Of a DNA stretch of 64,000 nt, positions 54,752-59,061 are shown one piece after another. Below the pieces are notes generated by a model. The model was not told the DNA's origin. It saw only the letters and a program-made list of their open reading frames with translations, and did not search any database. The DNA is taken from the NCBI RefSeq assembly GCF_000151315.2, contig NW_011887310.1, positions 34,755 through 98,754 on the forward strand, read 5' to 3'. Position 1 is the first letter of the stretch; each line of letters begins with the position of its first letter. The stretch comes from Capsaspora owczarzaki ATCC 30864 (Eukaryota > Opisthokonta > Filasterea). The translations under genes and the position numbers were made by a program.

Positions 54752-57700
54752 ATGTCGCAGTCGATTGCAATGAGCGACGCTCATCTGCCTGTGGCGCCAC
54801 AGCAGGTGCAGCAAGGAATCTACCGGTCAAAGCTCCCCTTTGAGAGCAAGCGTTTCCGCGGCCCTCTGTTCTGGTTCCCGTACAACGTGAACGAGGTCAC
54901 TGCGCGCATCGTCTCCTTCCAGGTGTTTGGCCTCTGCATTCTCGGCATTGTCGCTCGCCAGGAGCCCTGGATGTGGTACCTCACCTGCGGCATCTTCTTT
55001 GACTTTGTTCTTCGGTACGAAACTCAAAACTCAAACACCAGCGACTCACAAACCCGTTTCGCTCAGCCAATCAAACACCCACAATGAACGCGCTATCATG
55101 CCCACTGGGTGATGATCTGTCTTGGATCACTCGGTTGGAGGTGATTGTGAGACCGGAGGGGACGGGGATCTTCAGAGCGTGATTTCGCATTGTATTGAAG
55201 GAGGGAGGAGTGGGAGCTCGTCGATTCCAACCCTGTCCGGCGAACGCGCTTCGGGATCTTGCTACGCCATTCCCCTAGAGAGAGAGCCCGCTGCAGACGC
55301 GGTGGACGACGCAGTAGGGGTGAACGGAGAGAGAGCGAGTGGATTAGCTCCTTTGGGATCTACAAACTCAGCCGACCCGTCGCTCTCAAAAGAGCCAGGC
55401 TTGCTGTCAGCTCTGTTGGCCGCTGCGGTTTTGCTGCGTTGTTGGATCTTCCGTGACTTTGCGATGGTGGGGAGGACTGACCATGCATGCAAAGCACAGC
55501 GAAACAGCTCAAAAGCAAAAAAAAAAAAAAAAAAAAAAAAAAGGCTTCTTTTGCTTTGGTTTTGATTCTTCGTTACTGCGCTTTGATGAAGAGCCGCTCG
55601 GCTGTCCGTTTCAAGATGGAAGCTTGTCGCTCTGATTCCGCTGCGGTGCTGAGAAACGCCGTCGCTGCAGCTCAAAATGACCGATCAACAGCAAGCCAAA
55701 AAAGCAAAACAGCAAAACGGTTTTTTTTTTCTTTTTTTTCTTTTTTTTCTTTTTTTTTCTTTTTTTTTCTTTTTTTTCTTTTTTTTTTCTTTTTTTTTCT
55801 TTTTTTTCTTTTTTTTTCTTTTTTTTTTGAATATTTCGATCGGTTTCTGATGCAGAGCACTGAACGCCGCCCCATTCGTCGTGATTCGGTGCATTGGAGG
55901 TCCCGCGTTGGTGATTGAAGCGTCTCTTTCTCTCTCTCTCTCTCTTTCTTAGGGTTGCTCGTCCTACTGAGAGTGGGGAATCGGAGCTCCGTTTCAACTG
56001 AGATTGTGAATGGGAGGCTTCCATTCCGAAAAAAAAATGAAAATTCATGGCGCCCTTCTGTTCATTGAGTGATGTGAATGAACAGCGAGAGAGATCCGAA
56101 CGCTGCAGAGGTGGTTCTCTTGCGGGGATGTGTGTGTGTGCATCGAGTGTGGATGTGTGATGAGTGGTTGCTTTGTGCTCATCCTCTCTGCTGCAGCACT
56201 CTGAAAGTCCTTCTCTTTTCTCTGTTCTCTATTCTCTGTCTCTTCAATGATCATCCATACAACAAAGCATGCATGTGCTTTTTTTTTTTTTTTTTTTTTT
56301 TTTGCTCCCTCGACGATTTCTTTTTTTTTTTTTCTTTTTTCCTTGTTCGATACTTTCCATTCTTCCTTCCTTTCTTCTTTCGCTGCCACTCGTCCTCTTC
56401 TTGTCCTCATCATTCTTTGTTCCTCTTTTTTTTCCTTCTTCATCTCGCTCGCTTGCTTTCAATGCCGCGTCGGATTCATCGTCAAAGAAAGAAGTCGATT
56501 TCTCGGCTTTTTCCCTTTTTTTTTTCCTTTTTTTTTGCGCGCCTTTTTTCTCTTTTCGTTTTTCAAAAAAAAAAAATTCAATTTTCAGCATCAAAAACTC
56601 ACGCCTTCCAAGAAAAAAAAACGAAAAGAAAAAAAAAAGCTTCAACACTGGTTTTTGCAATTGAGAAACAAAAAGTCAATCAAACGTGAACAGAATAACA
56701 ACCAACATGAAAACTCACTGCTGACATCATCATCATCATGATCACGACACAGATTCATCGGCGGCGCTCGCATGTCCGTGCTCGGATCCATCGCAGAGTG
56801 GGTCGCAGCCTTCCTCCCCGTCAAGCTCATCCCCGGTGCCGGCAAGCAGTTTGCTCAGCTCTGCGGCGCCATGATCTCTGGCTTTGCCATCATTGCCTTC
56901 TTTGCGCCCAACTATGGCCAGTCGCCCGCTGGTGGCGCCGTCATGCTCGGTCTGTTGATGGGCGCTGCCGGTCTGGAGGCCTTCTTTGGCATCTGCCTCG
57001 GCTGCATCATGTTTGACCTGTTCATTCGCTTTGGTCTCCTGTCGCGTCATATTAACACGAATGCCGAGCACTTCTGGAACGAGCAGAGCCGCTTCATTGA
57101 AGAGTCCGACCGTCGCCTGAACGAGGGCAAGCCCGTTGTCCGCCTCCTCTACTCGACCCTCAGCCCCGACTCTGAGCGCACCATTCCTCTTCGCATCAAG
57201 GTGAAGACCGACGAGATGCGCCAGGAGGACTTCCACATTGTCAAGCACATGCACATTCACTACTTTGCCTTCATCATGGCGTCGATCGGCCTGGCCTGCG
57301 TCTGGTACGTCGCCTTGTCAATCAATACCAAAAACGAGCTTTGGGCGGGGTGTGTGTGGTTTTGTTCTTGTACCTTGCGCCTCTGAGCCTAACTTTTTTC
57401 TTCTCCTCATTCACATTCACAGGAAGGTCTCGCACGCCGTGCTCAAGACGGACAAGCAGCTGTGGCAAGGCCTCGGCATCTTCTCGGCTGTTGTCGGCGG
57501 CATTTACGTGCTCTTGTACACTGCCAAGATTGTCTTCTACCCGCGCAAGGTGTGGAAGGAATGGACCAACCCCAACAAGGTCAACTTTTTCTCCACCATC
57601 ACCATCTCGCTCTTGCTGTTTGCCTACCTGTCGGTCGACGTGGAGCTCGACATGGCCAAGTCGCTCTTCTGGCTCGGTGCCTCGTTCCAGCTCTTCCAAG

Positions 57701-59061
57701 CCGTCATCATTACGTCGCGCTGGTTCCGTTTCCCGCAGTCGCGCGATGCCTTCAACCCGACCTGGATGATCCCTGCCGTCGGCAACCTCGTTGCTGGCAT
57801 GGTTGCGCCGCTGCTCGACCCTGGCTACACGGAGGTGGCTTGGCTCTGGTGGTCGTTCGCCTTCCTCATGTACATTGTCCTCATCACCCTCTCGTTCAAC
57901 CGCATCATGTTTGGTGGCGTTGTTGACGACAAGGTCCGCCCTTCGTACTTTATCTTGGTGGCTGCTCCCGCTGTTGCCTTTGTCGGCTACACGGTGCTCC
58001 CCGGCGCTGGCGGCGCCGTCAACGGCTTTGACGCCTTTGCCCGCTTCCTCTACTACGTCGCACTCGTCACCTTCTTTGTTCTCGGCTGGTCCTTCTTCCG
58101 CTCGCTGTTTGGTCGCCACAACTTTGACCAGAGCTACTGGGCCTTTGTCTTCCCGCTGGACACCATGGCTCTCGCCGCCCTCGTCTACCACAGCTACATT
58201 TCGACCCCCGTGTCGCAGGCCATTGCTGTCTGTGCCTTGATTATCGTTAACGCCACCGCCGTTATCGTGCTCGCCAACTCTGTCAACGCTGCCATCCGTC
58301 TGCGCGTCTGGGTGCCCGAGGACAAGTGGGGCCCGCTTTCGCTCAACAAGATTGTTCACTACGCCACTCGCGACGCCTGCGTGCAGCTGCTCAACCTCAC
58401 TGCCATTTTCGAGGCCAAGAACGAGACCCCCACCGCCGAGGACATTGAGGCCTACCGTTCGCTCTACGAAAAGCTCGAGCACACGTTCAACGTGCACTCG
58501 ACCCACGAAGACGAGATTGTCTTCCCAGCCCTCCGCCTCTTCCACCCTAACGCCACCCTCGGTCACGAGGAGGACCACGACCGCGAACGCGCTCTTTTCG
58601 AAGACATTTCTCTCCTGATTGGTGTCGGCGAGAAGGGCCGCGAGGCCTTTGCCAGCATTTCGGACGCAGACCGCGCCGACCGTCTCCGCCAAGTGGCCGA
58701 CCTTACCAAGATGATGGTGGCCTCCACTATCAAGCATTTGGACGACGAGGAGAAGGAGCTTGGCCCCATCACTCGCAAGTCCTTCCCGCTCAAGCTGCAG
58801 AAGGAGATTGTGCGCAAAATGTTCTCGCGCACCCTCCCCGACGATCTTCGTCGGTACATTCTGTTTGTCTTGCAGTATGCACCCTTCCATGGCCAGCGCT
58901 CCCGCTTTGTGCAGTGCTTGCGTTGGTCCTTCCCCGAGCGTCTGCAACTCTTCGGCAAGTGGATTTACGAAGGCTCCGACCCGTTGGTCTGGAGCCGTAT
59001 CATCACTGAGGTTCCCGAACTTGCGCCTCGTGGTGTCCAATACTGGCACCCCACCGTCTAA
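54752..59061 (+). CDS. DUF4395 - SLAC1/TehA-like channel - hemerythrin fusion membrane protein
   Basis: Three exons, 54752-55014, 56753-57304, 57423-59061, both introns phase 2; 817 residues. DUF4395 ~20-185: YNVNEVTARIVSFQV, DFVLRFIGGARMSVLG, and the CxxC helix FGICLGC at ~168-171. This is followed by ~10 membrane segments ~275-600 with the TDT/SLAC1/TehA signature FQLFQAVIITSRWF and FNPTWMIPAVGNLVAG; this family includes plant SLAC1 anion channels, bacterial TehA and the yeast sulfite pump Ssu1. C-terminal hemerythrin HHE domain ~620-790: HSTHEDE, GHEEDHDRE and KHLDDEEKEL supply the expected His and acidic ligands of a di-iron site, continuing with LPDDLRRYILFVLQY. Proposed role: anion (sulfite, nitrite or similar) channel whose gating or redox state is linked to oxygen, NO or iron. 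That is inference; the three domains are seen. The first intron is 1738 bp. Confidence 0.85.
55722..55829 (+). repeat. (T7-9 C)n tract in the fusion gene intron
   Basis: About a dozen repeats of seven to nine T followed by C in intron 55015-56752. The same intron has an A run at 55518-55542, T runs at 56280-56303 and 56516-56536, and CT repeats. Confidence 0.95.

What the first reader, a model, noticed from the sequence alone, without database searches (positions are those of the whole stretch)
54752..59061. Three-part fusion: DUF4395, SLAC1/TehA-like anion channel, hemerythrin
One gene joins a CxxC-bearing DUF4395 membrane domain, a TDT/SLAC1-family channel and a C-terminal HHE di-iron domain with all expected His/acid ligands. 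The channel family includes the sulfite exporter Ssu1, and I recall DUF4395 as a bacterial domain seen near sulfur-transfer genes. A single protein that senses O2, NO or iron (hemerythrin), handles a thiol or persulfide (CxxC) and gates an anion would be a self-contained sensor-effector. I know of no described protein with this layout. The domains are seen; the function is inference.
Basis: partly seen in the sequence, partly recalled or inferred. Interest (0 to 1): 0.82.

Follow-up and report, generated by a model that had tools for sequence, protein, structure and literature searches.

The report
Redox- and iron-sensor-fused SLAC1 anion channel
A single-celled relative of animals (Capsaspora) has one gene that fuses a thiol-bearing membrane domain, an anion channel and an iron-binding hemerythrin domain; related proteins, many with an added glutaredoxin domain, occur in algae and other protists, and the function is still only inferred.

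Summary
The gene is real and the domains are right. The window is Capsaspora owczarzaki. Splicing 54752-55014, 56753-57304 and 57423-59061 gives 817 aa. Pfam finds DUF4395 (46-180), SLAC1 (253-557) and hemerythrin (602-720), each above its cut-off, hemerythrin only just. The motif H-HxxxE-H-HxxxE is complete, the CxxC is CLGC, the SLAC1 gate Phe is F515. A paralog has both introns at the same places and phase, so the 1738-bp gap is an intron; the public model (723 aa) lacks exon 1.

It is not a one-off. Twenty-six members were aligned: Capsaspora, Balamuthia, green algae, a pelagophyte, metagenomes. Twelve have a glutaredoxin above cut-off; Capsaspora has none. The CxGC is kept in 25 of 25 that cover it; iron ligands are complete in 12 and 0-1 of 6 in 13, so the hemerythrin looks like an optional regulator of a DUF4395-channel core. 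Some bacterial DUF4395 genes sit beside thioredoxin, DsrE and rhodanese genes.

Best reading: a cytosolic thiol/iron-controlled anion channel, possibly a sulfite exporter. Substrate and gating are inferred. I found no paper describing it.

The parts
54752..55014 (+). Exon 1 (codes residues 1-87 and two bases of codon 88): N-terminus, TM1 and most of TM2 of the DUF4395 domain; absent from the public model CAOG_08260
   Evidence: splice; public model starts at M95; same exon boundary in paralog; 35 of 84 aligned residues identical to paralog; differences at codon positions 1/2/3: 37/31/53
55015..56752 (+). Intron 1, 1738 bp, GT-AG, with long poly-T/C tracts
56753..57304 (+). Exon 2: rest of DUF4395, linker, first part of SLAC1 domain
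   Evidence: boundaries same as in paralog
57305..57422 (+). Intron 2, 118 bp, GT-AG
57423..59061 (+). Exon 3: rest of SLAC1 domain, hemerythrin domain, conserved C-terminal helical tail, stop
54887..57029 (+). DUF4395 domain, residues 46-180 (interrupted by intron 1); four long helices read as TM in the paralog's model
   Evidence: 67.6 bits; model of paralog
56994..57005 (+). CLGC (C169, C172), the CxGC motif, at the presumed cytosolic end of DUF4395 TM4
   Evidence: both Cys kept in 25 of 25 members that cover the site; topology inferred
57246..58278 (+). SLAC1/TDT anion channel domain, residues 253-557 (interrupted by intron 2), 10 TM
58150..58152 (+). F515, aligned to the SLAC1 pore-gate Phe (AtSLAC1 F450; the gate label is recalled)
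   Evidence: Alignment to SLAC1; Phe in 24 of 26 members
58339..58767 (+). Hemerythrin (HHE) domain with ligands H584 (58357), H630 (58495), E634 (58507), H657 (58576), H710 (58735), E714 (58747)
   Evidence: residues 602-720, 25.8 bits vs cut-off 25.3; motif; fold of paralog
58789..59061 (+). C-terminal helical tail with family-wide conserved residues; no Pfam match
   Evidence: nearly invariant W788, P791, E792, R793, W810, invariant P822, nearly invariant R823 in P0002 numbering

Best explanation
The gene encodes a membrane protein with 14 predicted TM helices. Its conserved working core is the DUF4395 domain (4 TM, with a CxGC at the cytosolic face) joined to a 10-TM SLAC1/TDT anion channel. 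The cytosolic C-terminal hemerythrin domain binds a di-iron centre and, together with the conserved C-terminal tail, sets the open or closed state of the channel according to iron, O2 or peroxide. The CxGC is the point where thiol redox state (or a persulfide) acts; electrons come from a glutaredoxin that is fused to the N-terminus in many relatives and is presumably a separate protein in Capsaspora. The most likely exported anion is sulfite, the end product of persulfide oxidation. Shown here: gene structure, domains, ligand motif, predicted fold of the close paralog, family spread, bacterial DUF4395 neighbours. Inferred: iron binding, topology, direction of gating, electron transfer from Grx to CxGC, substrate, membrane of residence.
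Confidence: 0.42

Rival explanations
1. It is an organic-acid (malate/C4-dicarboxylate) or chloride/nitrate channel of the SLAC1 type, used for osmotic or carbon balance and shut or opened by iron/redox state; sulfur is not the cargo and DUF4395 is only a thiol switch.
For: SLAC1 domain closest in PDB to plant SLAH1/SLAH3 and SLAC1, then TehA; SpMae1, a SLAC1-family protein, exports malate (PMC6765260, passages).
Against: Does not explain why the fused partner is a domain whose bacterial homologs sit with rhodanese, DsrE and thioredoxin in part of the loci.
Confidence: 0.25
2. The hemerythrin domain does not gate the pore; it works as in FBXL5, as an iron-dependent stability switch: without iron the domain changes shape and the whole channel is degraded, so channel amount follows iron.
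For: Fold match to FBXL5; FBXL5 is degraded when iron is low (PMC12475580, passages).
Against: Members that lost the ligands keep alignable sequence over the domain and the C-terminal tail, which suggests a structural or gating role rather than a degron; no F-box or RING partner domain.
Confidence: 0.25
3. It is mainly an electron or sulfane-sulfur relay: Grx and DUF4395 pass electrons or a persulfide into the membrane, and the SLAC1 part is the exit for the sulfur species, with no channel gating.
For: CxGC is among the best kept residues outside the channel; Grx fusions; bacterial thioredoxin/rhodanese neighbours.
Against: CxGC is inferred to lie on the same, cytosolic side as Grx, so nothing need be relayed across; an outer-side cysteine partner was not looked for.
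Confidence: 0.15
4. The three parts are separate genes or a mis-spliced model, joined only by prediction.
For: The public model starts at M95 and omits exon 1; intron 1 is long and repeat-rich.
Against: Both introns are shared in place and phase with the paralog, itself listed as one 832-aa protein; the same domain order recurs in other genomes and metagenomes.
Confidence: 0.02

Closest known systems
Plant S-type anion channels SLAC1/SLAH1/SLAH3 and bacterial TehA (SLAC1/TDT family, PF03595)
   Different: Those hold no DUF4395, Grx or HHE that I know of (recalled); 18-27% identity in the structural alignments of the paralog and of P0009; regulation in plants by phosphorylation is recalled
Yeast sulfite pump Ssu1 and fission-yeast malate channel Mae1
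   Same: Same SLAC1 Pfam domain (PMC6765260, passages)
   Different: Single-domain proteins as far as I recall; their sequences were not compared here
BRUTUS/HRZ and FBXL5 hemerythrin iron sensors
   Different: Those wire the sensor to an E3 ubiquitin ligase; here it is fused to a channel. BTS proteins have three hemerythrin units, this protein one
Bacterial stand-alone DUF4395 proteins (PF14340)
   Same: Same domain; window domain 41% identical to the Tsukamurella protein in alignment A4, CLGC kept
   Different: No channel, HHE or Grx attached in those seen; no function given in the papers found (listing only)
Grx-DUF4395-SLAC1-HHE proteins of green algae and other protists (e.g. Chlamydomonas sp. 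UWO 241, P0009)
   Same: Same order of the three shared domains and same C-terminal tail

Membership tests
SLAC1/TDT anion channels (PF03595) | Pfam SLAC1 match above curated cut-off | tested here: met
   151.9 bits vs 27.9, residues 253-557
SLAC1/TDT anion channels (PF03595) | 10-TM TehA/SLAC1 fold | tested here: met
SLAC1/TDT anion channels (PF03595) | Pore-gate Phe (SLAC1 F450) | tested here: met
   F515 aligned to AtSLAC1 F450
SLAC1/TDT anion channels (PF03595) | Anion conductance or export | not testable with these tools
   Needs electrophysiology or yeast rescue
NCBIfam tdt subfamily (TIGR00816) / TehA equivalog (NF008032) | Score above curated cut-off | tested here: not met
   113.9 vs 237.25 and 83.1 vs 342 bits, on the public model P0001
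DUF4395 (PF14340) | Pfam match above cut-off | tested here: met
   67.6 bits vs 24.5
Hemerythrin HHE (PF01814) | Pfam match above cut-off | tested here: met
   25.8 vs 25.3, marginal; paralog 24.5, below cut-off
Hemerythrin HHE (PF01814) | Six di-iron ligands H-HxxxE-H-HxxxE | tested here: met
   H584, H630/E634, H657, H710/E714
Hemerythrin HHE (PF01814) | Binds two irons | not testable with these tools
   Needs purified domain
BTS/HRZ or FBXL5 iron-sensor ligases | F-box or CHY/RING ligase domain in the same protein | tested here: not met
   Only three Pfam families listed at E up to 1, none of these
Grx-DUF4395-SLAC1-HHE family | N-terminal glutaredoxin | tested here: not met
   None in the window protein or its paralog; none in the open frame upstream, 48775-54222
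Grx-DUF4395-SLAC1-HHE family | DUF4395-SLAC1-HHE order with conserved C-terminal tail | tested here: met

The most novel reading that the evidence does not exclude
A widespread but undescribed eukaryotic channel family in which a BTS/FBXL5-type di-iron sensor and a glutaredoxin-fed CxGC membrane thiol site directly control a SLAC1 sulfite channel: iron and redox state would set sulfur export in one polypeptide, without a ligase or kinase, and lineages swap the sensor (iron centre lost, second Grx inserted into the dead hemerythrin) while keeping the DUF4395-channel core. It would also give DUF4395 its first function, as the thiol/persulfide gate of an exporter.
Probability: 0.2. Interest if true: 0.8.

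Novelty: new variant of a known kind. Interest (0 to 1): 0.57.

Why it matters
The eukaryotic hemerythrin iron sensors in the papers seen here (BTS, FBXL5) act through ubiquitin ligases; a hemerythrin built into an ion channel would be a direct link from iron or oxygen to ion flow. DUF4395 has no function in the papers found (93 listing only), and a natural fusion with a channel of known fold, plus glutaredoxin, makes its role testable. The 12 members with and 13 without iron ligands are a ready natural experiment.

Tried and rejected
Gene boundary instead of intron: rejected by introns shared with the paralog. Chance CxxC or chance iron motif: rejected by conservation across the family. Bacterial fusion of the same parts: 198 genomes of one bacterial phylum searched with PF14340 and PF03595, and 296 with the paralog protein. 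Of 198, 63 have DUF4395 and 25 have SLAC1 above cut-off (29 at E up to 0.001); I compared the listed places by eye: none share a frame, and the nearest pairs on one contig are about 35-46 kb apart (G077, G041, G099). In one search no listed match spans both domains. Only the best candidates are scored, and other phyla were not sampled. Viral relatives: one scan, none. Structure of the window's own protein: not attempted, as its spliced sequence is not contiguous in the DNA; the paralog and P0009 were folded. PDB sequence search with the HHE plus tail region: one weak match at E 0.72, so the HHE link rests on Pfam, motif and fold. NCBIfam gave a sub-threshold match of the HHE part to the iron-sulfur repair protein RIC (17.2 of 204.7 bits); not followed. 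DUF4395 fold: not resolved, because the channel fills the lists; not pursued. Flanking frames in the window give no functional hint.

Paper searches, ten in all, open-licence PMC only: DUF4395 (two papers, the passage in each read, incidental); hemerythrin+SLAC1+fusion (13, one paper, listing only); Capsaspora+hemerythrin (34, two papers; passages of one); sulfite+Ssu1+glutaredoxin+anion channel (35, one, listing only); SLAC1+glutaredoxin domain+algae (39, none); hemerythrin+BRUTUS+oxygen+iron sensor+FBXL5 (81, four; passages of one); SLAC1+Phe450+TehA+pore (83, none); Ssu1+sulfite+TDT family+TehA, at least three (84, one; passages); PF14340 and the two Capsaspora locus tags (93, two papers, both for PF14340, listing only); SLAC1+glutaredoxin+fusion protein+chlorophyte, at least three (94, 13 papers, 10 listed, none on this by title or start of abstract).

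Neighbour counts: ORFs were called by GC3 bias and length in 30 loci (28 with 1.5-kb flanks, 2 shorter). Of 135 ORFs called, a script dropped 8 and I dropped 35 by hand (DUF4395 frames and short or overlapping ORFs), leaving 92; two DUF4395 frames stayed in. The control is 72 of 73 ORFs (those of at least 75 aa) from stretches about 30 kb away on 19 of the 30 contigs. Only the 25 commonest families are printed, so a single control member of Thioredoxin, DsrE or Rhodanese would not be seen. An earlier crude gene call on 80 loci found by the Tsukamurella protein recovered DUF4395 in 53 of 80 and was not counted. A Nocardia record carried no annotation.

Full report
What was checked. The window lies in a 27.5-Mb genome and its protein is listed as CAOG_08260 of Capsaspora owczarzaki ATCC 30864, an opisthokont of the class Filasterea. 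Joining 54752-55014, 56753-57304 and 57423-59061 gives a 2454-nt CDS and an 817-aa protein; the introns are 1738 and 118 bp, GT-AG. The public model has 723 aa and starts at M95, so it omits exon 1. The window model is better: the DUF4395 score is 45.4 bits without and 67.6 with exon 1, exon 1 aligns to the paralog's first exon with 35 of 84 residues identical and most differences at third codon positions (37/31/53), and both introns sit at the same position and phase in the paralog CAOG_07723, where intron 1 is 500 bp.

Domains. Pfam gives SLAC1 253-557 (151.9 bits, cut-off 27.9), DUF4395 46-180 (67.6, 24.5) and hemerythrin 602-720 (25.8, 25.3). The hemerythrin match is marginal; in the paralog it is 0.8 bits under the cut-off, and a genome scan with the model listed this gene and one on contig 15 but not the paralog. 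The motif is the better evidence: H584, H630/E634, H657, H710/E714 is the H-HxxxE-H-HxxxE pattern that the BRUTUS paper gives for di-iron hemerythrins (PMC12022348, passages read). A PDB sequence search with the C-terminal region alone found nothing useful.

Core and sensor. In the 26-row alignment the two Cys of the CxGC, and the K, Q and E tabulated with them, are kept in 25 of 25 rows that cover them (P0004 is truncated); the gate Phe in 24 of 26 (P0012 and P0028 differ). The six iron ligands are complete in 12 rows, present 0-1 of 6 in 13, and one row (P0005) is truncated. On a tree of 27 rows the with/without split needs one change, in 92% of 200 bootstrap trees, though the deep forks are open and the branch itself has support 54/88. 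In P0011 and P0013 a second glutaredoxin lies, by the alignment, between helices 3 and 4 of the ligand-less hemerythrin. I read this as a fixed DUF4395-channel core with exchangeable redox sensors. That is inference from conservation.

What bacterial DUF4395 does. The nearest annotated bacterial homolog found (Tsukamurella, 41% identical in alignment A4) stands alone next to flotillin, MarR and flavodoxin genes. In Arthrobacter-type loci the frame upstream (sequences) looks to me like a DnaQ-type exonuclease; RNase_T is found in 2 of the 92 neighbours. In contrast a Microbacterium plasmid has thioredoxin, MBL hydrolase, TauE/SafE sulfite exporter, DUF4395 and rhodanese in a row, and Thiothrix has DUF4395 followed by a thioredoxin-domain gene. 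Sulfurovum, Spirosoma and Methylobacterium neighbours were not telling. Around 30 loci of the phylum sampled, 92 neighbouring ORFs gave Thioredoxin 7, Acyltransferase 5, DsrE 5, LmeA 4, Flavin_Reduct 4, Rhodanese 4, Thioredoxin_2 3, and single DUF1416 and PAPS reductase matches; in 72 control ORFs from about 30 kb away none of the thiol/sulfur families reached two members. So the sulfur/thiol link is real but partial. In 198 genomes, 63 have DUF4395 and 25 SLAC1 above cut-off, and no listed matches joined the two.

Mechanism. The protein most likely is an anion channel whose cytosolic face carries a thiol site (CxGC), fed by glutaredoxin, and a di-iron sensor. BTS/BTSL2 hemerythrin domains react with O2 and H2O2, and BTSL2's is very slowly reduced by glutathione (PMC12022348, passages); a glutaredoxin in the same chain would fit that chemistry. 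Sulfite is my first guess for the cargo because the SLAC1 family includes the yeast sulfite pump (PMC6765260, passages) and because of the bacterial neighbours; malate, chloride and nitrate remain open. Whether iron gates the pore or only stabilises the protein, as in FBXL5 (PMC12475580, passages), cannot be told from sequence.

Own genome. The scans list two DUF4395 and two SLAC1 matches, all in these two genes, so these fusions are the only SLAC1-type channels found in it. One further hemerythrin lies on contig 15.

Novelty. No paper found in the open-licence library describes the architecture or a function of DUF4395 (searches; passages 96, 97); subscription papers and preprints were not searched. 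The parts are all known; their combination, and its spread, are the new point. Hence 'new variant of a known kind'.

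Noticed in passing
Public model CAOG_08260 vs window 54752-55014: The public gene model omits exon 1 (starts at M95), so its DUF4395 domain is cut short; the window sequence supports an 817-aa protein.
   Followed up: yes
P0011 and P0013 (Micractinium conductrix and an unnamed relative): A second glutaredoxin lies, by the alignment, between helices 3 and 4 of a hemerythrin domain that has lost its iron ligands.
   Followed up: partly
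P0008, P0026, P0027 (Nannochloris/Micractinium group): The N-terminal region reads CAFS or CAYS where the glutaredoxin active site CPFC lies in others, a monothiol-like form, in members that keep the iron ligands; Pfam Grx is below cut-off in two and not listed in P0027.
   Followed up: no
P0005 (Balamuthia): Named glutaredoxin domain-containing protein by its source, but no glutaredoxin is found in the 673-aa sequence, which also ends before the hemerythrin domain; probably an incomplete gene model.
   Followed up: no
L091 (Microbacterium plasmid, 498-4344): Row of genes thioredoxin, MBL hydrolase, TauE sulfite exporter, DUF4395, rhodanese, which suggests a persulfide-oxidation/sulfite-export operon with DUF4395 inside.
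   Followed up: partly
G000:C15:650527-650877 (-), locus L005: A further hemerythrin-domain frame in the same genome, 37.5 bits, not part of this gene or its paralog.
   Followed up: no
59746-61173 (-): CCCH zinc-finger protein (two zf-CCCH stretches, tristetraprolin-like by my reading), convergent with the gene of interest.
   Followed up: no
48775-54222 (+): 1815-aa open frame rich in single-residue runs, with a CCHC-like zinc knuckle near its end and no Pfam match.
   Followed up: no
Intron 1, about 55720-55830: Long regular poly-T tract interrupted by single C residues; a poly-A run lies at about 55517-55542.
   Followed up: no
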